From assembly GCF_000092905.1 (NCBI RefSeq), contig NC_014098.1, forward strand, positions 2,542,001-2,606,000: 64,000 bases of DNA, in the 5' to 3' direction. The position numbers and the translations under genes were made by a program. Below, one piece after another: positions 13,697 through 26,142 of this stretch. The DNA comes from Kyrpidia tusciae DSM 2912 (GTDB taxonomy: Bacteria; Bacillota; Bacilli; Kyrpidiales; Kyrpidiaceae). The notes beneath the pieces were generated by a model. It had not been told where the DNA came from. It did not search any database and was given only the letters and a program-made list of their open reading frames with translations. Position 1 is the stretch's first letter; each line of letters begins with the position of its first letter.

Positions 13697-14473
13697 TCAG
13701 CCGAAGCGGCCGGTGATGTAGTCCTCCGTGCGTTTATCCTGGGGTTTTGTGAACAATTCGTCCGTGCGATTCACCTCCACCAGTTCACCATTCAGGAAAA
13801 ACGCCGTGTAGTCCGACACCCGGGCCGCCTGCTGCATATTATGGGTTACGATCACAATAGTATAACTCTCTTTTAGTTCTGTAATCAATTCTTCAATTCG
13901 AAGAGTCGAAATGGGGTCCAGGGCGGACGTCGGCTCGTCCATGAGCACCACTTCCGGTTCCACCGCCAAAAGTCTCGCAATGCACAGTCGTTGCTGCTGA
14001 CCCCCGGAAAGGCCCAGGGCCGGCTCGTGGAGTCGATCTTTGATCTCGTCCCAAAGGGCCGCCCGGCGCAGGGAACGCTCCACAATCTCGTCCAGCTTCT
14101 TCTTGCTCCGGGTACCGTGGATGCGCGGCCCGTAAGCCACATTGTCGTACACCGACATCGGAAACGGGTTTGGACGCTGAAACACCATCCCCACCCGCTT
14201 TCGCAAATCCACCACATCAATGCGCGGCCCGTAGATATCTATCCCGTCGATTCGCACCGTTCCGGTGATACGCACCCCGGCAATCAGGTCGTTCATTCGA
14301 TTCAACGTGCGGAGAAACGTCGATTTTCCGCACCCGGACGGGCCGATCAGGGCCGTGATCGCCCTCCGGTGGACGCCCATCGATACATTGAACAACGCTT
14401 GCGCCGATCCATAGAACAGATTCAATTGTTCCACATCGATTTTGACTTCACCCGCAGCCGGCAAGGCGTCCAT
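13697..14473 (-). CDS. pstB: Phosphate ABC transporter ATP-binding protein PstB
   Basis: About 258 residues from the ATG at 14473, which is spaced 7 bp from GGGGAGGA. An earlier in-frame ATG at 14479 sits too close to that site. Walker A is GPSGCGKST, the signature LSGGQQQR and Walker [13 protein letters not shown]. The LNRMNDLI segment after Walker A is specific to PstB. It powers phosphate import through PstC/PstA. As first gene of its operon it lies directly behind the Pho-box promoter at 14530-14583. Confidence 0.96.
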
Positions 14474-14529
14474 GACCATTCCTCCCCGCGCCGCCACCTA
14501 CCGTGCACAGCCGGCGGCACACTGCTTTT

Positions 14530-14583
14530 AGTCTATCGAACAAACGTAAATAGATCATGAACCGAATGTGAACCTTGGGTAAA
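14530..14583 (-). promoter_or_regulatory. Pho-box promoter of pstB-phoU-pstC-pstA
   Basis: Read on the minus strand there are four 11-bp tandem units: TTTACCCAAGG (14583-14573), TTCACATTCGG (14572-14562), TTCATGATCTA (14561-14551) and TTTACGTTTGT (14550-14540). Each starts with TT(T/C)A. The -10 box TAGACT (14535-14530) begins 15 bases after the start of the last unit, so the repeats replace the -35 box. This is the design of PhoB/PhoP-activated promoters. Binding by the regulator encoded divergently at 14685 is inferred. Confidence 0.8.
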
Positions 14584-14684
14584 TACAATTTTACAGACCA
14601 TCTATACAAATCTCACAACGAGACAACATAAAACTATTACAATAAGAAGACACAAGCACGTTTCGTTCTGGGAGGCTGGCCGAG

Positions 14685-15416
14685 GTGGAGCGAATCCTGG
14701 TGGTCGATGACGAAGAAGCGATCCTCGCGGTCCTGCAGTTTCATCTTGAAAAAGCCGGATATGTGGCCGAAACCGCAACCCACCCCGAAGAGGTGTTTCA
14801 GCGCCTCCGGGAGGGGGAGCCGGTGGACCTCATTATTCTGGATCATATGCTTCCAGACATGAGTGGATTGGACATCTGTAAAATTCTCCGGCAAGAAGGA
14901 ATCACGATCCCGATTATTTTTCTGACCGCCCTGGACGACGAAGTGGAGCGGGTCCTGTGCTTGGAGATGGGCGCCGACGACTACATCACCAAACCCTTTC
15001 GCCCCCGGGAACTGGCGGCCCGGATTCGGGCCGTCCTCCGAAGGTACCAACTGTCCGGCAACGGGGAGCAGCGCACTGCGGACGTGCTCCACGCGGGACC
15101 GGTCATCATTGATTTGGCCAAACATACCGTGACCGTATTCGGGCAGGATGTTTCCCTGACCTTAAAAGAGTTTCAACTGTTGCACCATCTTGCTGAACAC
15201 GCCGACAAAGTGGTCACCCGGGACACCCTCCTCGATCATATCTGGGGATTTAAATACACCGGCGACACCCGGGTGGTGGATGTGCACATCAGCCACTTGA
15301 GAAACAAGATCGAACCGAACCCCGCTTCCCCCCAATTGATCAAAACGGTCCGCGGGGTCGGTTACAAGTTGATCACCGGGAGGGCGGTGCCGGGAAATGA
15401 CCCGGCGGATGAATGA
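14685..15416 (+). CDS. PhoB/PhoP-type response regulator (OmpR family)
   Basis: A 243-residue OmpR-family regulator starting at a GTG with GGGAGG nine bases upstream. The receiver domain has DDEE (acidic pocket), the phospho-acceptor Asp in LIILDHMLPD, the switch Thr in FLTAL and the Lys in DDYITKPF. A winged-helix DNA-binding domain follows, ending with VVDVHISHLRNKIEPNP and TVRGVGYKL. Position between pstB and pstS and the Pho boxes on both genes point to the phosphate regulator. No histidine kinase gene follows, which is unusual for phoBR/phoPR. Confidence 0.88.
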   Translation: MERILVVDDEEAILAVLQFHLEKAGYVAETATHPEEVFQRLREGEPVDLIILDHMLPDMSGLDICKILRQEGITIPIIFLTALDDEVERVLCLEMGADDYITKPFRPRELAARIRAVLRRYQLSGNGEQRTADVLHAGPVIIDLAKHTVTVFGQDVSLTLKEFQLLHHLAEHADKVVTRDTLLDHIWGFKYTGDTRVVDVHISHLRNKIEPNPASPQLIKTVRGVGYKLITGRAVPGNDPADE

Positions 15417-15464
15417 GCGGCGGATCTCCTTCCACGCCGGCTCCGGGCACCGGGCACTCGCCGG

Positions 15465-17915
15465 TTAGGTTCTAGCCACGAGCTCACCAGGCTCCTCAAC
15501 CGGGATAGACCCTCCCGTGCCCGGCTCGGGCACCTCGATCTCTGCGGAGGAGACTTCCCGAGTGGCCGCCGTATTCTCCCCCACCCCGGAGTCCGGCTCA
15601 GACCCCGTTTGTTGCGCATTCTCGGAATCCGGGGGAGATGCGGACGGTATCGATGAGGACGTGTTCTGCAATCCCCAAAACGAGATCACGTCGAGTAAGG
15701 ACACGCCGAGGCCTTCCAGATTTTTCATCTCCTGTTGCAAGAGATGGAACAAGTGGTGTTGCTCCCCGAACCCCGACGACAACTCCTGGGTGGCCGCCGA
15801 CGTCTCCCGAGCGACCTCCAGCACCCCCCGCATGTTCTCCACCATGGACTCCCGGGCGACGGCCATCTGCGTCTGGACGCCGGCCATCTCTTCGATCCGG
15901 GTCGCCACCCCGCCGAGAGCCGCCACCACCTCGTCAAACGCCCTCTTGGCGCGTCCGGCCGTCTCCACCCCTTGAACCAGGCCCCGACGGCTTTCCTCCA
16001 TCGCCTGGCGGGCTTCGGCAGCATCCTCCCCGACCTGCGCCGCTCGCCGCTGAATTTGGGCGGCATTCTCCCGGCTCTGTTCCGCGAGACTTCTGATCTC
16101 CTCCGCCACTACCGCAAATCCCCGACCCCCGTCCCCGGCCCGGGCGGCCTCGATCCCGGCATTGAGCGCCAGGAGCTCGGTCCGGCGCGCCAACTTGCTC
16201 ACCATCTCCACCGCCTCGGAGATGACCACACTGTGGTCGGCCAGGCGGCCCACACGGGCTCTGGCCTCTTCCATCTTTGCAACGAGACTTTGCCAGCTCC
16301 TCTCCCAGGCCTCCATGGTCGCCCGAGCATCCTGTGCCACGCCCCGGCCTTCGACGGACTGTTTCACCACCCCGCGAAACTGCGCCTCCCAGCCGGCCAA
16401 AAGCTGGGCCAGCACCTCCAGTTCCTCCCGAGCCCGGGCCACCTGCTCCGCCTGATGAGCCGCACCCGCGGCAATCTGTTCCGTCGACAAGGAAAGGCTG
16501 ACCGCCACCTCCTCGGCCGTGGAGGTACTGCCTCTCGCCCGACCAATTCCTGTACCCAGAGTGTGGGCCGCCTCCCGAAGGCGCGCGGATACCTGAGTCA
16601 ACTTTTCCACCATCACCAGATATCCCCTGGCGAGGTCTCCTACCTCATCCTTTCGCAGAGCTGTCCGCTTCATTCTCGTTCTCTCCATGTCAGAGAGACG
16701 CAACTCCCCCCGGGCCACCCGGCGGATCCCCCGGGCGGCCAGCTGAATCGGCCGAGCCAACCCTCCGGCGGTCAAGGCGCTGAGCACCATCGAAATCACC
16801 AAGAGCACCGCGGTGGAAACGAGCAACGTCCGCTCCAGCACCGCGGCCCCCTGGGTCAGGTCCGAGACCGGCCCGCCAGCCGCAATGACCCAGCCCCAGT
16901 CGGGAACCGTATCATAGGCCGCAAAATGCGCTTCAACCCCTTCCCCCGGCGCAGCCCACTGATATTCCATCGTTCCGCGACCGGTCTGCACCATCTTTTG
17001 CAACCATGAACCATCGCCGGGGGGCATGGGCATGCCGCTGGGCGGGACCGCGAATGTCGGGGCCTGACCGCCTGTGGCCCCATCGCCCGCCTTCAGCGCA
17101 AAAGCATATCCCCGGGAACCGATATGTACACTCCGGATATGATCGGCCAGCCGGTCCATATACGGTTGCAGGGCGACCTCAATACCGATGGCGCCCACCA
17201 CGTTCCCTCGATCATCGGCCAAGGGCATGTCGTATACTTGATACAGCCGCCCTTGAATCATGACGACTCCGGAGTAGTAGGCCCCTTGTCTGAGAGACTG
17301 AAGTTCCTGGGGGGACAGGGGCGCCTCTCCCAACACCCGTCCCTGGCCGTCCTTTAACGAGGTGAGCGTTCGGACGAAAGAATCCCCCCGACGCACCGCG
17401 ATGCTCACATCCGTACCCGTAAACTGGGTGAGCTGGGCCAAGAACTGTTCATTTCCGCTTACTTTTTGGTTGCCGAAGTAAAGGCCGTCATCCCGGGCCG
17501 CCGGGGCTCCCTCATCGGCCCGGAGGCGCGAGATCAAAAAACTGGCTTGCTGATACCCCTGATTCGCCCTTTGTACCGCCACGTCTTGAAGTTCTTTCCC
17601 CGACTGCACCAAGAGCCCCACAATCTGTGTGGTCTCCTCCGCCGCTCTATGCTGGGCCTCCTGTTTGACCAAGATGACCGAGAGAACGCCCAAGCATCCC
17701 AGTGCAACCAACAGCAAAAGACCTGTCACTGCAGACAGCCGCCAGCGTAGCGACGAAAACCCCTTACCCCATTTCACCCCGACCACCCCGCGCCAAAAGA
17801 TGACGTCCACGTCACAGCGAAGGAACTTTCGGATCGAACGGTGTTCACCGTCAAAAAAACGGCGGACGAACGAGAACGTCCTCCCGCCCGTCCGCCGCAC
17901 GATCCGCTTAGGCAC
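15465..17915 (-). CDS. Methyl-accepting chemotaxis protein with Cache-like sensor domain
   Basis: Up to 816 residues. The true start is unsure, because the first 45 residues look non-native and GTGs at 17786 or 17777 would start just before the first membrane segment (residues 61-85). A periplasm-facing Cache-like domain (about 90-365) contains TGTDVSIAV and [10 protein letters not shown] second membrane helix, a HAMP segment and a signalling domain follow, with the hairpin [25 protein letters not shown]. Kinase control via CheA/CheW is expected. A link to phosphate taxis is suggested only by its position between the phoB-like gene and pstS. Confidence 0.9.
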
Positions 17916-17955
17916 CGATCACCGCTGCCGAAACCCTGCCTCAGGCGTCCGATCG

Positions 17956-19065
17956 TTATTGCAACACCGGCTGGCCGCTTGCCGTAATTTGCTTCAACAG
18001 CCCCACCGCCATCTCCTGCACATTTTGCGGCAGGGGAGCGTACTGAATGGTGGTCGCCAACTTCTGGCCGTCGGTCACCACGTACTTCATCACGTCCAAC
18101 AAAGTCTTGGCTTTGTTGGCGTCTTTCTGGTCTTTCCAGAGCAGCACCCAGGAGTACCCGGCGATGGGGTAACTGCCGTCTCCCGGCGCGTTCACGATGG
18201 AGAAGTTATCCGCGCTGACGTTCGGGAACTGGGAGGCCGCCGCGGTGACCGATTCCAAGGTTGGAGCCACGTATTTGCCCGCCTTGTTCTGCAGGGCCAC
18301 ATAACTCATCTTGGTCTCCAGCGCATAAGCCAACTCCACGTATCCGAAAGCACCGGTGGTCTGCTTGATCTGGCCGGCCACGCCTTCGTTCCCCTTCGCG
18401 CCCAGGCCGCCAGGCCACTGAACCGATTTACCTTTGCCAATCGAGGACTTCCACTCCGGGCTCACGGCGCTCAGATAGTCGGTCACGATGTAGTTCGTGC
18501 CGCTGCCGTCCGACCGATGAACCGTGGTGATCGGGGTGTCGGGCAACTTGACGTCTGGATTCAACGATTGGATCGCGGGATCATTCCAGTTTTTGATCTT
18601 GCCGAGGAAAATCTTCGCCACAACATCCGGGGTCATCTTGAGTTGCTGGGTGACCTCCGGCAAATTGTACGCCAGGGCCACACCGCCCAAAGCCACCGGG
18701 ATCTGCACCACATCGCCACCCGCCGCTTTGGCTTTGGCGTATTCATCTTTGTTGAGCGGCACGTCAGTGGCGCCAAAATCAACCAACTGTTTCGTGAACT
18801 GCTCGATTCCGGCTCCGCTGCCCACAGACTGATAATTCACTTCGACATTGGGATGAGTATTCTTGTATTCCGCAAAGGCCTTGGAAAAATACGGGAAGTC
18901 AAAGGACGATCCAGCACCAGTCAATTGGACCTTGGCCTGATTCGACTGGCCGCCACCGGTTTGATTAGTGTTGCCCGGGGTGGCACTGCTTCCGCACCCG
19001 GCCAACAAAGTGGCCGTGAGAGCAAGAACCCCAAAGGGCTTCCAAACCCGTTTCACAATTTGCAT
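17956..19065 (-). CDS. pstS: Phosphate-binding lipoprotein PstS
   Basis: A 369-residue precursor with a lipoprotein signal (hydrophobic stretch, then LLAGCGSS) that anchors the protein outside the membrane. Phosphate-binding elements are visible: GAGSSFDFPYFSKAF, the DFGATDVPL loop and HRSDGSGTNYIVTDYL. It delivers phosphate to PstC/PstA. The gene is separated from the other pst genes by the regulator and a chemoreceptor and has its own Pho promoter. Its ATG is preceded by AAGGAGG. Confidence 0.96.
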   Translation of the reverse strand: MQIVKRVWKPFGVLALTATLLAGCGSSATPGNTNQTGGGQSNQAKVQLTGAGSSFDFPYFSKAFAEYKNTHPNVEVNYQSVGSGAGIEQFTKQLVDFGATDVPLNKDEYAKAKAAGGDVVQIPVALGGVALAYNLPEVTQQLKMTPDVVAKIFLGKIKNWNDPAIQSLNPDVKLPDTPITTVHRSDGSGTNYIVTDYLSAVSPEWKSSIGKGKSVQWPGGLGAKGNEGVAGQIKQTTGAFGYVELAYALETKMSYVALQNKAGKYVAPTLESVTAAASQFPNVSADNFSIVNAPGDGSYPIAGYSWVLLWKDQKDANKAKTLLDVMKYVVTDGQKLATTIQYAPLPQNVQEMAVGLLKQITASGQPVLQ

Positions 19066-19100
19066 GCTGTGCGCTCCTCCTTATTATCATTTCGTCCCCA

Positions 19101-19154
19101 AGTATAGCGGCCCGATCTAAACGCAACATGAACGCATTTTAAAACTTATGTAAA
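19101..19154 (-). promoter_or_regulatory. Pho-box promoter of pstS
   Basis: On the minus strand four 11-bp units follow each other: TTTACATAAGT (19154-19144), TTTAAAATGCG (19143-19133), TTCATGTTGCG (19132-19122) and TTTAGATCGGG (19121-19111). The -10 box TATACT is at 19106-19101, again 15 bases after the start of the last unit. The architecture is the same as at pstB. The pstS start codon is 36 bp downstream of the -10 box. Confidence 0.82.
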
Positions 19155-19164
19155 GATCGGGCCG
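19108..19164. repeat. 11-bp perfect inverted repeat flanking the pstS Pho boxes
   Basis: CGGCCCGATCT at 19108-19118 is exactly inverted as AGATCGGGCCG at 19154-19164, with 35 bp between. The arms enclose the central Pho repeats, and the inner arm overlaps the last repeat and abuts the -10 box. The outer arm abuts the presumed right end of the tnpB element. It could be an operator, or a match between the element's guide region and the promoter. Confidence 0.6.
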
Positions 19165-19179
19165 AATGTGAATCCTCCC

Positions 19180-19365
19180 CCCACTGAAGTGGTGGGCATC
19201 CATCCATAGGCGCGGGAGAAGCCTCGGCATCCGGCAGCGGGGCTGCCGCCCAGGCTTTCCTGACCCCTTAGGCTGGACGGGTTCCTGGATTCCCGGACAC
19301 CTGCCGGGAACGTCGTCCCGCAGGCGACCCCTCCCTTTCGGGAGTCGCAGGCTTTCGCAATGTGG
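19180..19365 (-). ncRNA. Putative omega RNA (right-end guide RNA) of tnpB
   Basis: The 186 bp between the tnpB stop and the right-end hairpin are GC-rich and full of short inverted pairs (for example GGCAGCCCCGCTGCC and CTCCCGAAAGGGAG). TnpB proteins use an RNA made from the 3' end of their gene and the right end, with the guide taken from flanking DNA beyond the element. If the scaffold ends near 19173, the guide would begin ATTCGGCCCGATC. The boundaries are inferred from family knowledge. Confidence 0.5.
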
Positions 19366-20748
19366 TTAGGCGCTCTTTTGTTGCAACCGCTTTTCCTCCC
19401 GGATGAACCAGGCCATGCCGATGTTGATGGCGGCATTCACGTGGCTGTTGTGAACGGTGCCGCAGTTCCTGCACGCCAAGATGTTGCCGGCCCTCGAAGT
19501 CTCCAGCGAGCCGCACAGCGAACACCGGGCGCTGGTATCCTTCGGAGAGATAAGAGCAACCAGAATTCCCCGTGCCTTTGCTTTGTACGTGGTGTATTTC
19601 ATCACCCTCCGGTGCAGCCAGTAACCGATCCTCTGCCTCATCCTGGCCGAACCGTGCTTGTTCCTGTCCGGCCTGAAGTGCTTCAAGTTCTCGAACACAA
19701 TGACCCGAGCATCCCACTCCATCGCAAGGTCCACCAGGCGTTTGCTTACATGGTGGGCGTAATTGTCGTTTGCCGCGTGAACCTTGCGCCAGAGCTTTTT
19801 GCAGGGCCGGTGACCCTTCGGGACGATCCCCAGGCCGCTCACGTTCCGGGCAATGAGCCCCAGCAGGTGGTGGACATCCGTCGTGTTACACGCCGTCAGG
19901 CCGATGTGCCTGACTTTGTGAACCGTACCGTCCTTCCCCACCAAGGCGCACACCGCCCGGTTCTTGCGGCCCAGGTTCAGGTCCACGGCCAGCACCTTCG
20001 GCCTCTTGGACCGGTAGTAGTCGGTGAACTTCATTACGTTGGACTTTTTCTCGAAAGCGGTCACCAGGTGGAAGATACCCTCTCTTTCATAAACGGTGGG
20101 CACCGTCATCTCCCACGAATCATCCAGATGGAGCTTCCTTGAATGACGGGTGGGTTCCACTTCCACGGTGATGAACCGCCAGTCGCTCCCGTCCCAGACT
20201 TTTAGCTGAATCGTGTTGGCCTTGAGCGAAAGATTCTTGAAGTCGCCTTTGTAAAAGGTGATGCCCACGTTGCCCGCCGCCGGATACTTCGGCGGGTGTT
20301 CGTCGAAAGGGATTGGTTTTTTGCCTTCGGCAACACGACTTTCGTTTCTGTTCTGTATCCTTTCTTTTTTTCTGAGCCACCGCTGGTAGTTGGAATGCCA
20401 GCTCTTCGCCATGCCGATCGCCTTGGCGATAATCACCCGGCGCAGATATGCCGGAAACTTCGGCCAAACGGCGTCGATCGGGTAAGGCGGGTTGGGATTG
20501 CCACCGAATGGTTTCCCGGTTTTCCTGTTCATTCGCGGTTCTGTCCGAACCGTCAGTCTTTCCAGCGCCCTTGTGCCGGAATTCCTGTCCCACCCGGGCA
20601 GTTTGTCGAGATTGTCATGGATCACGTCCAGGTAAAACCCCAAGACGGCCCGATAGATTTCTTCCGTCCGTCGGATCATCTCCGGAGAACCGGTGATAAA
20701 TCTCCCAATACGCTGTTTGGTCGAGATTATGTTTTTGACCACTGGCAT
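19366..20748 (-). CDS. tnpB: TnpB-family RNA-guided nuclease with altered catalytic triad
   Basis: 460 residues from the ATG at 20748 (AGGTGAAGAG upstream), or 484 from an ATG at 20820. I use the longer numbering. RuvC motif I has Asp280 (VLAVDLNLG), motif II has Glu377 (VIVFENLKHF), and a zinc ribbon has Cys433/436 and Cys450/453. Motif III, normally (D/A)D-x-NAA-x-NI, reads NSHVNAAINI, so the third acidic residue is His460 (codon CAC at 19443-19441). Nuclease activity may be lost, or carried by a rearranged residue. The frame is otherwise intact. Confidence 0.88.
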   Translation of the reverse strand: MPVVKNIISTKQRIGRFITGSPEMIRRTEEIYRAVLGFYLDVIHDNLDKLPGWDRNSGTRALERLTVRTEPRMNRKTGKPFGGNPNPPYPIDAVWPKFPAYLRRVIIAKAIGMAKSWHSNYQRWLRKKERIQNRNESRVAEGKKPIPFDEHPPKYPAAGNVGITFYKGDFKNLSLKANTIQLKVWDGSDWRFITVEVEPTRHSRKLHLDDSWEMTVPTVYEREGIFHLVTAFEKKSNVMKFTDYYRSKRPKVLAVDLNLGRKNRAVCALVGKDGTVHKVRHIGLTACNTTDVHHLLGLIARNVSGLGIVPKGHRPCKKLWRKVHAANDNYAHHVSKRLVDLAMEWDARVIVFENLKHFRPDRNKHGSARMRQRIGYWLHRRVMKYTTYKAKARGILVALISPKDTSARCSLCGSLETSRAGNILACRNCGTVHNSHVNAAINIGMAWFIREEKRLQQKSA

Positions 20749-21054
20749 TCTCTTCACCTGCCACGGTTTTATTGTACCATTGAAGGAGATTACAAGGATT
20801 TGGCCGCCTTGACTCCCCATTAAAATGGGGAGGATCCGGCGGCTGGTTTCTCAAAAAAAGCCGGGAATCACCGATAGGACAGGTGCGTTTCTGTGCGTAA
20901 ATCGAGGCCCGGACCCTCTTCCACCGGTGGAGTTCCTTGTGGTTTTTGAGAATCCCCGCGCCGATTTGCTAGAATAGACCCGTGCCCTTCCGGGCATCCA
21001 CCCGTTCGACCGCTGTACGGCACCCTTCGGGGGAGAGAGAGGAGGTCCTGATCG
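20749..21054. other. Gene-free region between tnpB and mscS
   Basis: It holds the left end of the tnpB element (hairpin 20813-20832) and, from about 20840, the leader of the mscS-family gene with a sigma-A-like promoter. A short hairpin GCCCTTCCGGGC lies just after the promoter. No open frame here looks coding. Confidence 0.5.
20946..20975 (+). promoter_or_regulatory. Sigma-A-type promoter of the first mscS gene
   Basis: TTGAGA (20946-20951) and TAGAAT (20970-20975) are separated by 18 bp, each one base from consensus. They lie 80 bp before the ATG, which is itself preceded by GAGGAGG. Confidence 0.6.
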
Positions 21055-22062
21055 ATGCCCCTCGATTCTCAGGAAAAATCTAGATTCCCTTGGAAACAGA
21101 CCCTGGTCGCCTTTTTTCTCCTGATCCTTTTGGCCGTCCTGCTGGAACTGGGGTCAGACTTCGTCACCAGCCGACTCGCCAAGGAATACCGCACCGTTTT
21201 TGCCACGGGGATGGCAGTCTTGTGGGTTGTCATCGGTTTTCTCCTGGTCAACCGAATGCGGCACATCCTCATGAGCATCGTCTATCACACGCCCCGACAC
21301 GCCAGCATGTGGAACCTCGGGGTCAACGTCCTGACGGGATTTGCGTACTTATTCGTGGCGGTGTTCAGCCTCCGCATGGCCAACACCTCGGTCAGCAGTC
21401 TCCTGGTCAGCGGCGCGGTGACCGGCGTCATCGTCGGAATCGCCGCCCAGTCCACCTTGGCCAATATTTTGGCGGGCCTCGTGATCATGACCTTGAGACC
21501 TTATACGCTCGGCCAGCGCATCACCTGCCGTTCCTGGATGTTCTCCGGCACAGAGTACACCGGTGTCGTCGAGGAGTTGAACCTGTTTTATACCGTTCTC
21601 CGGGATGGGGAGATCACCCGGGTTCTTCCGAATTCTACCACCGTGGTGGCCGCCGTCACGATTCACTCCGAAGACACCGCCTACAGCACCTTCACCCTCG
21701 GGCTCCCGTATCATTGTCCCCTGTCCGCCGCCCGGGAAAAACTTCGGACCCTGGCCGGGCCAGAAACAGACCTTTGGGTAGACTCCTTCGGTGAGAAAGC
21801 GGTCCAGTGCCGCGCCCGCATCCCCGCCGGCGACCCCGACGCGTTGCGGCGTCTTATGGTATGGGCCGAAACTTTTTCGCGAGATGCAGGGGCTGCGGAA
21901 CGTGAAGACCTGCAGCTTGGCGTCCAATCCAGCGGTACCGGAGAGCGCGAAAAAAGTCTGTCAAAGGATCTATCCCCCGATGGTGACGGGATACAAGCTC
22001 CGGACCCGGCCCGGCCACGGAGTCTTAACTCCCCTGGAAACCGAGGGCTCGACGAATCATGA
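21055..22062 (+). CDS. Small-conductance mechanosensitive channel, MscS family
   Basis: A 335-residue membrane protein. Three or four hydrophobic helices (residues about 17-36, 50-65, 86-105 and 115-150) lead into the MscS pore helix (SGAVTGVIVGIAAQSTLANILAGLVI) and the beta domain with VVEELNLFYTVLRDGEITRVLPNS. The last 50 residues are polar and look unstructured. MscS channels open on membrane tension to release solutes during osmotic downshift. The stop overlaps the next gene in an ATGA. Confidence 0.9.
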   Translation: MPLDSQEKSRFPWKQTLVAFFLLILLAVLLELGSDFVTSRLAKEYRTVFATGMAVLWVVIGFLLVNRMRHILMSIVYHTPRHASMWNLGVNVLTGFAYLFVAVFSLRMANTSVSSLLVSGAVTGVIVGIAAQSTLANILAGLVIMTLRPYTLGQRITCRSWMFSGTEYTGVVEELNLFYTVLRDGEITRVLPNSTTVVAAVTIHSEDTAYSTFTLGLPYHCPLSAAREKLRTLAGPETDLWVDSFGEKAVQCRARIPAGDPDALRRLMVWAETFSRDAGAAEREDLQLGVQSSGTGEREKSLSKDLSPDGDGIQAPDPARPRSLNSPGNRGLDES

Positions 22063-22325
22063 CGTTCCGACAGTTTCTTCTGCGAGCGGCCCTTTTGGCG
22101 GCAGGTTGGATCCTGATCCTCGCCCCGGCCACCGGGAGCCGGGATGTCTTCGATACGCCGTCTCGAACCTTGCTCATGGCCCTTTTGTTGGGCGCAGCGA
22201 GCTCCCTCTTATGGTTTGCCCTCAAAAGGTCGGTCAAAAAACGCCGGCGCCGCAGACGACACAAAAAGAACCCGGTCAGACGCGGAAAGAAAACAGGCAC
22301 TCGAACCACCAAAAGCCGGCGGTAG
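22059..22325 (+). CDS. Small membrane protein with highly basic tail
   Basis: An 88-residue protein whose ATG overlaps the mscS stop (ATGA), so it is probably co-translated. Two hydrophobic segments (about 9-22 and 37-54) are followed by a tail of Arg/Lys-rich sequence from residue 58 to the end. I do not recognise a family. By the positive-inside rule the tail is cytoplasmic, where it could touch nucleic acid, lipid head groups or the channel. Confidence 0.6.
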   Translation: MTFRQFLLRAALLAAGWILILAPATGSRDVFDTPSRTLLMALLLGAASSLLWFALKRSVKKRRRRRRHKKNPVRRGKKTGTRTTKSRR

Positions 22326-22482
22326 AGCAGTACCCGCCATCCCCCTGGCCTGGAACGATCATTATGTTTCCCATGGGCCGGGGGATGCCGCCGGCACCCA
22401 TGTTCCTCCCCTCTTCGGAGCATACCGGGATGAAGGGAGCATGATGGGAATCAGAGGATTGAAGTGAATTGGCCGATAATGT
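22326..22482. other. Short region with no convincing gene
   Basis: A 157-bp gap between the basic membrane protein and the terminator. A short methionine-rich frame on the plus strand near 22362-22441 is open, but it has no clear ribosome site, so I do not call it. Confidence 0.3.
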
Positions 22483-22512
22483 AAACAGGGGCGCCCGAAA
22501 GCGCCCTTGTTT
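22483..22512. terminator. Bidirectional intrinsic terminator between mscS unit and acnA
   Basis: AAACAGGGGCGC and GCGCCCTTGTTT form a stem with one G-T pair around a CCGAAA loop. The AAAC on one side and GTTT on the other supply short U-tracts in both directions, which suits the convergent genes. Confidence 0.65.
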
Positions 22513-22570
22513 CGTGAGTTCACCCGTACCGAACTGCTCGCACCGCCCCGCCCGGGCGGGAGCAAGCCGT

Positions 22571-25282
22571 TCAACCGTTCAGCAGTTGCCGCAACACCGT
22601 TTGCAGAATCCCGCCATTCCGGTAGTATTCAATCTCCACCACCGAGTCCAGGCGCACCAAGGCGTCGAACTCTAGGCGCCCGCCATCTTCATCCACCGCG
22701 GTCACCCGGACGGTGGACAGGGGCTGGATGTCATCAGAGAGGCCTTGAATGTCAAACCGCTCTTTCCCGGTCAACCCCAAGCTCTTCCAACTCTCTCCTT
22801 TGGTGAACTGGAGGGGCAATACCCCCATCCCCACCAGATTCGAACGGTGGATCCGCTCAAAGCTCTCAGCCAGGACCGCTTTGACACCGAGGAGCATCGT
22901 GCCCTTCGCCGCCCAGTCCCGGGAACTTCCGGTGCCGTACTCTTTGCCCGCCAAGACCACGAGGGGCGTGCCGTCCGCCTGGTATTTCATCGCCGCATCA
23001 TAAATCGGCATGGTCTCGCCGGTGGGCAAATACACCGTCACCCCGCCCTCGGTGCCCGGGGCCAACAGGTTTCGAATCCGGATATTCGCGAAGGTTCCCC
23101 GCATCATGACCTCGTGGTTGCCCCGCCGGGAGCCGTAGGAATTGAAATCCCGGCGCTCCACGCCGTGCTCCATGAGGTATTTGGCCGCGGGGGAATTCGG
23201 CGCGATACTCCCCGCCGGGGAAATGTGGTCGGTGGTCACCGAATCCCCCAACAGAGCCAGAACCCGTGCACCGCGAATATCCGCGATATGACCAGCTTCC
23301 CGGCTCAGATTGACAAAGAAGGGCGGTTCTTGGATGTAGGTCGAATCGGCGTCAAAGTGATACAGTTCCCCTTCGGGAGTGGGCAGGGCGTTCCACCTCT
23401 GGTTCGCCGTGAGCACATGGGCGTACTCCTCGGAGAACAATTCCGCCGTCACCGCCTGTTGAATCGCGGCTTGGACCTCTTCGGAAGACGGCCAAATGTC
23501 TTTGAGATATACGGGGTTGCCGTCGCGATCCGTCCCCAGGGGTTCTTTTGACAGGTCGATATCCACCGTTCCGGCCAGGGCGTAGGCCACCACCAAAGGC
23601 GGAGACGCCAGATAGTTCGCCCGGACGAGGGGATGAATCCGGCCCTCAAAGTTTCGGTTGCCGCTGAGTACCGCCGCCACGGTCATATCCTTCTCCTGGA
23701 TGGCCTCGGCCACCTCGGGATCCAGGGGGCCGCTGTTCCCGATACAGGTGGTGCACCCGTATCCCACCACCGCAAAACCGAGCTGCTCCAAGGCCGGCAA
23801 CAGCCCCGCCCGCTTCAAATAGGCCGTGACCACCCGGGAGCCGGGAGCCAGGGAACTTTTCACATAGCGCGGCTTTGTCAGCCCTTTTTCCACGGCCTTT
23901 TTCGCAAGCAAGCCCGCACCGATCATCACCGAGGGATTGGAGGTGTTGGTACAGCTGGTGATGGCGGCGATGACCACCGCGCCGGTGCGCAGAGTCTCCC
24001 GGCCGCCGTCCGGGTATTTTACATCCGAAGTACGAGCCAGGCCCTCTTTGCCGAATCCAAAGCCGCCCTGATCCACCGGCGATTCCACCGCTTTTTCAAA
24101 GGACGCCTTTAAATCCGGCAACGGCACCTTGTCCTGGGGCCGCTTCGGACCCGCCAACGTCGGTTTCACAGTGGAGAGATCCAGTTCCACGATGTCGCTG
24201 AATACCGGCTCGGGAGCCTCTTCGGTATGAAGCAGCCCCTGGGCTTTCAGATACGCCTCCGCCAAAGCGACATCTTCCGCCTTTCTCCCGGTCAACCGCA
24301 GGTAATCCAACGTTCTTTCATCGACGGGAAAATACCCCATCGTCGCGCCGTATTCCGGCGCCATGTTGGCGACCGTCGCCCGGTCCGCCACGGTGATAGA
24401 GGATAATCCGGGGCCGAAAAACTCGACGAATTTCCCCACCACGCCCTTTTTGCGCAGAAGGTTCGTCACCGTGAGCGCCAGATCTGTGGCCGTCGACCCC
24501 TCTGGCAGGCGGCCGGTCAGCCGGAACCCGATCACTTCGGGGATGAGAAAATACAGCGGCTGGCCCAGCATCCCGGCTTCCGCCTCGATGCCGCCAACGC
24601 CCCAACCGAGAACGCCCAGGCCATTGATCATGGTGGTGTGGGAGTCGGTGCCGACCAAGGAATCGGGAAAGAGAACCGTCTCCCCCCCTTCTTCCCGCCG
24701 TCCCACCACAGAAGCCAAGTACTCCAGGTTCACTTGGTGGACGATGCCCGTCGACGGTGGGACCACCCGGAAGTTCTCAAAAGCACCCTGGGCCCAGCGC
24801 AAAAACCGATAGCGCTCTTCATTGCGCTGAAACTCCAGCTCCACATTGCGCTCCAGAGCCTCGGGGGTGCCGTACAGGTCGACTTGAACCGAATGATCGA
24901 TCACCAGGTCCACCGGGACCAAGGGGTTGATTTTGCCCGGATCGCCGCCCATCTCTTTGACCGTTCGCCGCATCGCCGCCAGGTCCACCACCGCAGGCAC
25001 GCCGGTGAAATCCTGGAGAACGATGCGGGCCGGCTTAAAGGGGATCTCCACCGGATGACGGTGACTCTCCTGCCAATTGGCCAACTTCTTGACATGTTCC
25101 TCGGTGACCCCTTTGCCGTCCACCTGCCGAAGTGCCGCCTCCAACAACACCCGAATGGAATAGGGGAGTCGAGAAATCGGGCCCACGCCCTGTTTGTCCA
25201 GGGCGGGCAGGCTGTAATAGACGTAACGCTTCCCTCCCGCCTCAAGCGTCCGCCGGGTTTGAAATACGTCCTGACTTGCCAT
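22571..25282 (-). CDS. acnA: Aconitate hydratase (AcnA/IRP1 type)
   Basis: A 903-residue AcnA-length enzyme. The [4Fe-4S] cysteines lie in [11 protein letters not shown] and [12 protein letters not shown], and the C-terminal swivel domain contains [13 protein letters not shown] with the catalytic Ser. It interconverts citrate and isocitrate in the cytosol for the TCA cycle. The ATG at 25282 follows a GTG and is spaced 8 bp from GAGGTG. The gene is monocistronic, with its own promoter and the terminator at 22483-22512. Confidence 0.97.
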
Positions 25283-25335
25283 CACTTTGCACCTCGCCTT
25301 TTACCATGATCGGTGTCCCTGTTGCAAACAGCTAT

Positions 25336-25364
25336 AGTGTAGCGCATTTCCTCTTTTTCGTGAA
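25336..25364 (-). promoter_or_regulatory. Promoter of acnA
   Basis: On the minus strand TTCACG (25364-25359) and TACACT (25341-25336) are 17 bp apart, 54 bp before the acnA ATG. Confidence 0.5.
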
Positions 25365-25518
25365 CGTTTTACCAAGCTGTTTCGTCAAACCCGGACTGCT
25401 GTGCCTATTCCCAGTGTGTCGATTCGCCCTTCGGATCATCCCGAAAGCGCGACTTTGGAGCTATAATGGATTTTGTAAGTCGAATCCCGAGCCTTGGCGA
25501 AAGATGGGGAACAATGGC

Positions 25519-26142
25519 ATGGAAACAGACGCGTTGGAGAACTTCCTAAAGGAGAGAAAACCGAGGATTCTGGGCAGCGAAGGGATGGTGCAGGCGGCCG
25601 TGGCCCTGCCTCTCCGGGAGGGAGACGGAGGATGGCAGCTGGTCTTTGAAGTGCGCTCCCACCGGCTTCGCCGCCAACCCGGCGAAATCTGTTTCCCCGG
25701 AGGGCGGGTGGAACCGGGAGAAGATCCGGCGATGACGGCCATTCGGGAGATGGGGGAAGAGCTGGGGATGCCGGAAAATCGCATCAAGGTGTTGGGGCCG
25801 CTCGACATTCTTGTAAACCCGTGGCGGACCATCGTCTACCCCTACGTGTGCCGGATTGCCCCCGAGCCCCTGCATCCAAACCCGGATGAAGTCGAAGAAG
25901 TATTTTGTGTACCCGTGAATTACTTTCTCCGTCATCCCCCGGAGGTGCACCACGTCCACCTGGACGTGCACCCCGAGGAAACTTTCCCCTTCCACCGTAT
26001 TCCCGGCGGACGCGACTACCCCTGGGCCCGGGGACAGACACCGGAGTATTTTTACGAGTACAAAGGGAAAGTGATCTGGGGACTCACCGCCCGGATCCTG
26101 AAACATTTTCTCGATCTTATGACAGCAGGTAAAAGCCGGTAG
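25519..26142 (+). CDS. NUDIX hydrolase, CoA pyrophosphatase (NudL/YeaB) type
   Basis: About 207 residues from the ATG at 25519 (GGGGA 8 bp upstream). An ATG at 25504 is an alternative. The NUDIX box reads GGRVEPGEDPAMTAIREMGEELGM and is complete. The preceding RLRRQPGEICFPGG matches the NudL/CoA-diphosphatase signature. The likely reaction is hydrolysis of CoA or its derivatives to phosphopantetheine and 3',5'-ADP. A TATAAT at 25462-25467 may be its -10 box. Confidence 0.85.
   Translation: METDALENFLKERKPRILGSEGMVQAAVALPLREGDGGWQLVFEVRSHRLRRQPGEICFPGGRVEPGEDPAMTAIREMGEELGMPENRIKVLGPLDILVNPWRTIVYPYVCRIAPEPLHPNPDEVEEVFCVPVNYFLRHPPEVHHVHLDVHPEETFPFHRIPGGRDYPWARGQTPEYFYEYKGKVIWGLTARILKHFLDLMTAGKSR

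What the first reader, a model, noticed from the sequence alone, without database searches (positions are those of the whole stretch)
19366..20748. TnpB with a D-E-H catalytic triad
RuvC motif III reads NSHVNAAINI, where TnpB proteins have Asp before VNAA. The codon is CAC, one base from GAC. Frame, zinc ribbon and the other two acidic residues are intact, so this looks like a selected or very recent change. Nuclease-dead TnpB relatives are known to act as RNA-guided repressors, and some TnpB lineages shift the catalytic residue.
Basis: partly seen in the sequence, partly recalled or inferred. Interest (0 to 1): 0.65.

Follow-up and report, generated by a model that had tools for sequence, protein, structure and literature searches.

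The report
TnpB lineage with histidine third residue
A small jumping gene carries an RNA-guided DNA-cutting protein whose usual third catalytic aspartate is a histidine in every copy found across several bacteria, so this is a stable, selected version of the enzyme and not a broken gene, though whether it still cuts DNA is untested.

Summary
The ORF at 19366-20748(-) is a 460-aa TnpB with intact RuvC-I Asp, RuvC-II Glu and zinc ribbon, and His (CAC, 19441-19443) where RuvC-III normally has Asp. All copies that retain this region carry His: five in this genome, and relatives in the same genus, the same family, another bacterial family (84-85% identity) and an IMG/VR contig (86%, codon CAT). No TnpB compared outside this clade has His. 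The clade is monophyletic (100/100) on a long stem. Purifying selection acts on the whole protein, RuvC half included (dN/dS about 0.1-0.2; dS up to about 0.65). The 3' omega-RNA region is even more constrained (divergence 0.09 versus dS about 0.6). The gene sits in a 1682-bp TnpB-only IS200/IS605-type element with exact ends, a 5' TTGAG target and an empty site in a congener. Each copy has a different guide; the window guide has no TTGAG-flanked target in the genome, so a fixed-target repressor is not supported. Best reading: a working omega-RNA-guided TnpB whose RuvC-III Asp is replaced by a metal-binding His, probably attenuated rather than dead. A nuclease-dead binder remains the main rival.

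The parts
19168..20849 (-). Whole TnpB-only IS200/IS605-type element (1682 bp) between its exact ends
   Evidence: Alignment of the copies gives identical ends; joined flanks match an uninterrupted site in congener G001 with no duplication
20850..20854 (-). Target site / presumed TAM 5'-TTGAG at the left end (outside the element)
   Evidence: TTGAG precedes the left end in the window copy and all other copies with an intact left end
20813..20832 (-). Left-end imperfect palindrome CTCCCCATTTTAATGGGGAG
   Evidence: Sequence; conserved in copies
19366..20748 (-). tnpB, 460 aa plus stop, the H-variant TnpB
   Evidence: PF07282 57.6 bits over cut-off 26.3; TIGR01766 48.8 over 32; AF2 model mean pLDDT 83.7 with Cas12f/TnpB fold matches
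19981..19983 (-). RuvC-I Asp (D256 of 460; D280 in the 484-aa frame)
   Evidence: GAC in all copies with this region
19690..19692 (-). RuvC-II Glu (E353 / E377)
   Evidence: GAG in all copies with this region
19537..19539 (-). Asp in the PKDTS loop after the last RuvC strand (D404 / D428), candidate supplementary carboxylate
   Evidence: Conserved in the H clade except L086, a copy truncated at both ends; inferred only
19462..19524 (-). Zinc ribbon, C433-C453 in the 484-aa frame (CSLCG...CRNCG)
   Evidence: Sequence; Pfam PF07282
19441..19443 (-). RuvC-III position: His (H436 / H460) instead of Asp, codon CAC
19168..19365 (-). Omega-RNA scaffold / right end, including 3' hairpin CCACTTCAGTGG at 19181-19192
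   Evidence: JC divergence 0.09 versus coding dS about 0.6; MFE -98.8 kcal/mol, z -2.6; 4 pairs with compensatory changes
19148..19167 (-). Guide (about 20 nt of host flank immediately 3' of the right end)
   Evidence: Conservation stops exactly at 19168; no TTGAG+guide match elsewhere in the genome

Best explanation
This is a lineage-fixed active-site variant of a transposon-borne, omega-RNA-guided TnpB. The element carries only tnpB and its omega-RNA and is moved in trans by a Y1 TnpA. TnpB binds the 3' omega-RNA, is guided by the host flank and recognises TTGAG plus the flank, that is, the empty donor site left by excision. The RuvC-III Asp has become His. Most likely His still holds a catalytic metal (possibly helped by the nearby loop Asp D404), giving a weaker or metal-shifted nuclease that still performs TnpB's retention job. 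Shown here: fixed His, intact other residues, purifying selection on protein and RNA, exact element ends, TTGAG target, different guides, no TTGAG-flanked second target for the window guide. Inferred: RNP assembly, TnpA in trans, metal binding by His, residual cleavage, retention function.
For: His in all copies that retain the region, in 4+ genomes and a viral-collection contig, with both CAC and CAT codons. dN/dS 0.1-0.2 in both halves for most pairs; Asp256 and Glu353 never lost in the clade. Omega-RNA region divergence 0.09 versus dS 0.6, with compensatory changes. At least seven copies with exact ends at different sites, empty site in G001, TTGAG target. The window guide occurs in the genome only at the element's own right end, preceded by TTCAC; so if the guides work as in other TnpBs the only target is the empty site, where cleavage is the known benefit and binding has no obvious one (PMC8612924). 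Precedents: Deinococcus-Thermus RuvC naturally has His as its third active-site residue and is active but weaker, H143D raising activity (PMC3834835); Cas9 RuvC-III His983 coordinates Mg (PMC8112549); a TnpB with a rearranged RuvC-II site still cuts, and a clade with rearranged RuvC-III exists (PMC10278001).
Against: No activity data. In Cas12m2, His in a RuvC triad (at position I, together with Asp at II) goes with binding without cutting (PMC10442227). TnpB's RuvC-III Asp may align with RuvC D141 / Cas9 D986 rather than with the D138/H143/H983 position where His is naturally accepted (my reading of the motifs, not a structural test). Many copies are damaged: in G000 one is split by another IS and one has an internal deletion; no intact copy was seen in G001.
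Confidence: 0.5

Rival explanations
1. Nuclease-dead TnpB: the D-to-H change abolished cleavage and the RNP acts by RNA-guided DNA binding alone (for example occupying the empty site, or repressing genes near TTGAG-guide matches), as Cas12m2 and TldR do.
For: The RuvC-III Asp is otherwise near universal. Cas12m2 with a His-containing triad binds but does not cut (PMC10442227). TldR proteins are TnpB-derived RNA-guided transcription factors (PMC13418256, abstract; that they are nuclease-dead is from memory). A cyanobacterial TnpB lineage also lost this Asp (to Gly) and kept long ORFs.
Against: Asp256, Glu353 and the zinc ribbon are kept under purifying selection. The window guide has no genomic TTGAG-flanked target. 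No shared neighbourhood or shared guide between copies, unlike TldR.
Confidence: 0.3
2. Relocated carboxylate: the loop Asp (D404, PKDTS, five residues before the first zinc Cys) has taken over the third carboxylate, so the enzyme is effectively D-E-D with a moved residue and His is incidental.
For: The neighbouring loop position (seven residues before the first zinc Cys) hosts the relocated Glu of Fanzor-like TnpBs, so the loop reaches the active site (PMC10711439). Both lineages without the RuvC-III Asp mostly carry Asp here. The one H-clade exception, L086 (Asn), is a copy truncated at both ends.
Against: Asp also occurs at this position in canonical-Asp relatives (L104, L105, L111, L082), and the Asp-less L084 has Asn. 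His is strictly kept, which an incidental residue need not be.
Confidence: 0.12
3. Decaying passenger: the TnpB is non-functional and hitch-hikes with element ends recognised by TnpA.
For: Several broken copies in G000, G001 and G003, and end-only remnants at 3 sites in G000.
Against: dN/dS 0.1-0.2 for most pairs across dS up to 0.65 and strong constraint on the omega-RNA scaffold beyond the terminal hairpin; intact ORFs in at least four genomic sources.
Confidence: 0.06

Closest known systems
IS200/IS605 TnpB (e.g. ISDra2 TnpB, AmaTnpB)
   Same: Fold, RuvC-I Asp, RuvC-II Glu, zinc ribbon, 3' omega-RNA overlapping the right end, TTGAN-like target at the left end with no target duplication
   Different: RuvC-III Asp replaced by His; no tnpA in the element; about 17-36% identical to the canonical TnpBs compared here
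[quoted passage not shown]
   Same: RuvC-III context NSHxN resembles NADxN/NSDxN; noncanonical RuvC-III residues are already documented in TnpB
   Different: The exact D-E-H arrangement is not described in the text I could read; the residue pattern of RIII-r4 was not available, so identity with it is untested
Deinococcus-Thermus RuvC resolvase (Tth RuvC, H143)
   Same: Natural His as third residue of a RuvC active site, in thermophile/extremophile bacteria; active
   Different: A Holliday-junction resolvase with four active-site residues, not RNA-guided; the His may not be at the homologous helix position
Cas12m2 (type V-M)
   Same: RNA-guided RuvC effector with a His in the triad
   Different: His is at RuvC-I (HDD), CRISPR-associated
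TldR
   Same: TnpB relative with a noncanonical RuvC site
   Different: TldRs are exapted with fixed host-gene targets; these copies are mobile with a different guide each

Membership tests
TnpB (IS200/IS605 accessory RNA-guided endonuclease) | RuvC plus TNB zinc ribbon fold | tested here: met
   PF07282 57.6 bits (cut-off 26.3); TIGR01766 48.8 (32); Foldseek AsCas12f E 1e-18 and TnpB 8h1j E 9e-12. NF040570 scores 81.5, below its cut-off of 100
TnpB (IS200/IS605 accessory RNA-guided endonuclease) | D-E-D catalytic triad | tested here: not met
   D-E-H; third residue His in the whole clade
TnpB (IS200/IS605 accessory RNA-guided endonuclease) | Located in an element with a left-end target motif, no target duplication, palindromic ends | tested here: met
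TnpB (IS200/IS605 accessory RNA-guided endonuclease) | Conserved omega-RNA at the right end with guide outside the element | tested here: met
   Conservation and structure; RNA not observed experimentally
TnpB (IS200/IS605 accessory RNA-guided endonuclease) | RNA-guided dsDNA cleavage | not testable with these tools
   Needs biochemistry
TldR (exapted nuclease-dead TnpB repressor) | Loss of RuvC catalytic residues | tested here: inconclusive
   Only the third residue differs, to a metal-binding residue
TldR (exapted nuclease-dead TnpB repressor) | Immobile, conserved neighbour gene, guide matching a host target elsewhere | tested here: not met
   Copies at different sites with different guides; no genomic TTGAG-flanked target for the window guide
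RuvC-III rearranged TnpB clade (RIII-r4) | Membership in that tree clade / its specific alternative residue | not tested
   The defining alignment (PNAS 2023) is not held; PMC10278001 names the clade without giving its residues
Cas12m / type V CRISPR effector | Adjacent CRISPR array | tested here: not met
   No closely spaced direct repeats of 20 bp or more in window 14000-26000

The most novel reading that the evidence does not exclude
A natural D-E-H TnpB that is a fully functional RNA-guided nuclease with altered chemistry (single-strand nicking only, Mn2+ or high-temperature dependence, or RNA processing without DNA cutting), maintained because attenuated cutting is tolerated by the host and lets a TnpB-only element persist.
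Probability: 0.25. Interest if true: 0.65.

Novelty: new variant of a known kind. Interest (0 to 1): 0.45.

Why it matters
If D-E-H cuts, it shows that RuvC-III of TnpB/Cas12 tolerates His, gives a natural attenuated nuclease or nickase scaffold, and makes the evolutionary route from cutting TnpB to binding-only effectors directly testable with a single back-mutation in a small protein whose omega-RNA and target motif can be read from the genome. If it does not cut, it is a mobile binding-only TnpB under selection, which would question the view that TnpB is kept only for its cleavage.

Tried and rejected
Recent point mutation: rejected, since all close relatives have His. Pseudogene: rejected for the window copy. 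The apparent early stops in L019 and L077 lie upstream of the real start. Compensation by the loop Asp as the proven answer: not accepted, because that Asp also occurs in canonical relatives and is Asn in two sequences. Rfam match for the omega-RNA: none. Viral-contig and phage searches for intermediate relatives: only one IMG/VR contig, no phage record above 60% identity; the stem of the clade stays long (1.28 substitutions per site). The PNAS 2023 TnpB census could not be read. Guides of the other copies were not searched for targets.

Full report
Observation. The minus-strand ORF 19366-20748 encodes a TnpB. Open reading continues to 20820 (484 aa), but Met25 is the likely start. It has a ribosome-binding sequence, aligns with the start of the sister clade, and follows a segment with no predicted structure. 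Two relatives have a stop upstream of it and an intact gene after it. RuvC-I Asp (D256), RuvC-II Glu (E353) and the four-Cys zinc ribbon are present. The RuvC-III motif reads HNSHVNAAINI. Alignment to solved Cas12f/TnpB sequences and to about 40 relatives puts His436 exactly where Asp is expected.

Is it recent or fixed? Five places in this genome retain the region and all have His: the window copy, two further intact copies (97-98% identical), one with an internal deletion and one split by another insertion sequence. A frameshifted copy in a second species of the genus, a copy in another genus of the family (the Alicyclobacillaceae MAG Bu37), an IMG/VR contig (86%) and two copies in a genome of another family (84-85%) also have His, with CAC or CAT. 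In the tree these form one clade (100/100) on a long stem of 1.28 substitutions per site. The nearest TnpBs from other Bacillota, about 30% identical, have Asp in the same context (NSDFIGS). The other recognisable TnpB families of the own genome whose motif I read also have Asp. A separate cyanobacterial lineage has Gly at this position. No sequence compared outside the clade has His. The change is old.

Is the lineage functional? Pairwise Nei-Gojobori dN/dS within the clade is 0.1-0.2 over most pairs, with dS up to about 0.65, and it is low in the RuvC half too. Asp256 and Glu353 are never lost in the clade. His436 is as conserved as those residues, but most sites are invariant in this clade, so its own conservation is not independent proof of selection on that residue. 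The 170 nt downstream of the stop, short of the terminal hairpin, differ by only 0.09 substitutions per site between the window copy and the 85-87% identical relatives, against dS about 0.6. This region folds better than shuffles (z -2.6) and has four pairs with compensatory changes, although Rfam has no family for it. Protein and omega-RNA have both been maintained.

What element is it? Copies share exact ends: TTGAG then AAACC...CCCCATTTTAATGGGG at the left, and ...CCACTTCAGTGGGGGGAGGATTCAC at the right. The window element is 1682 bp, 19168-20849. The joined flanks match an uninterrupted site in the congener with no duplication. It contains no tnpA; the genome has three Y1 transposase matches over the family cut-off elsewhere, which could act in trans (inference). 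Each copy has a different flank and hence a different guide. The window guide preceded by a TTGAG-like motif was searched with up to 3 mismatches. The only hit is the element's own right end, which is preceded by TTCAC. So if it works like known TnpB, the only target of this RNP is the empty donor site.

Mechanism. TnpB is proposed to cut the empty donor site so that the element is restored from the sister copy (PMC8612924). A binding-only RNP would gain little there, which favours retained cleavage. A natural third-position His in a RuvC site is known in Deinococcus-Thermus resolvases, which are active but weaker, with His-to-Asp raising activity (PMC3834835). Cas9's RuvC-III His983 binds Mg (PMC8112549), and a TnpB with a rearranged RuvC-II still cuts (PMC10278001). 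Against this, Cas12m2's His-Asp-Asp site binds without cutting (PMC10442227). The loop Asp404 may help: the same loop hosts the relocated Glu of Fanzor-like TnpBs (PMC10711439). However, Asp404 is not unique to Asp-less lineages. I put 0.5 on an attenuated nuclease with His as metal ligand, 0.3 on a dead binder, 0.12 on a relocated carboxylate and 0.06 on a decaying passenger.

Comparison and novelty. It works within the TnpB scheme and belongs to the TnpB superfamily by fold, zinc ribbon, element context and omega-RNA, but it fails the D-E-D criterion. Noncanonical RuvC-III TnpBs are already known as a class (RIII-r4, PMC10278001, citing the PNAS 2023 census, which I could not read). I therefore rate it a new variant of a known kind.

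Noticed in passing
L078, L079, L084 and L050 (Calothrix plasmid AP018292.1; IS607-type resolvase next to tnpB in L050): A cyanobacterial TnpB lineage has RuvC-III Asp replaced by Gly (AHSGLNAARN) and has lost the zinc ribbon, with otherwise long ORFs: a second independent loss of this residue.
   Followed up: partly
G000:C1, 33 PF07282 places: This genome is very rich in TnpB: about 11 near-identical copies of one family (mostly 486 aa), five of a 502-aa family, and at least four others; those whose motif I could read have the RuvC-III Asp.
   Followed up: partly
L016 (G000:C1 about 2029300-2031260, minus strand): A 657-aa open frame joins a phosphoesterase-like N-terminus in frame to a TnpB whose RuvC-II reads ILVGELNG (Glu shifted by one); possibly an in-frame insertion.
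   Followed up: no
L131 (G000:C1:2896500-2905500): One H-variant copy is split by an insertion carrying a transposase of IS256-like appearance.
   Followed up: partly
L127, L128, L129 (G000:C1 about 2060.7, 3265.5 and 3002.5 kb): Element right-end / omega-RNA remnants without tnpB, 69-194 bp, 88-93% identical.
   Followed up: no
L106 (G669): A relative has lost both RuvC-I Asp (Gly) and RuvC-III Asp (Ala) in a full-length ORF; probably decaying.
   Followed up: no
L077/L135 (IMGVR_UViG_3300032111_000012): An intact H-variant element lies on a 61-kb contig classed as viral; whether the contig is truly viral was not checked.
   Followed up: no
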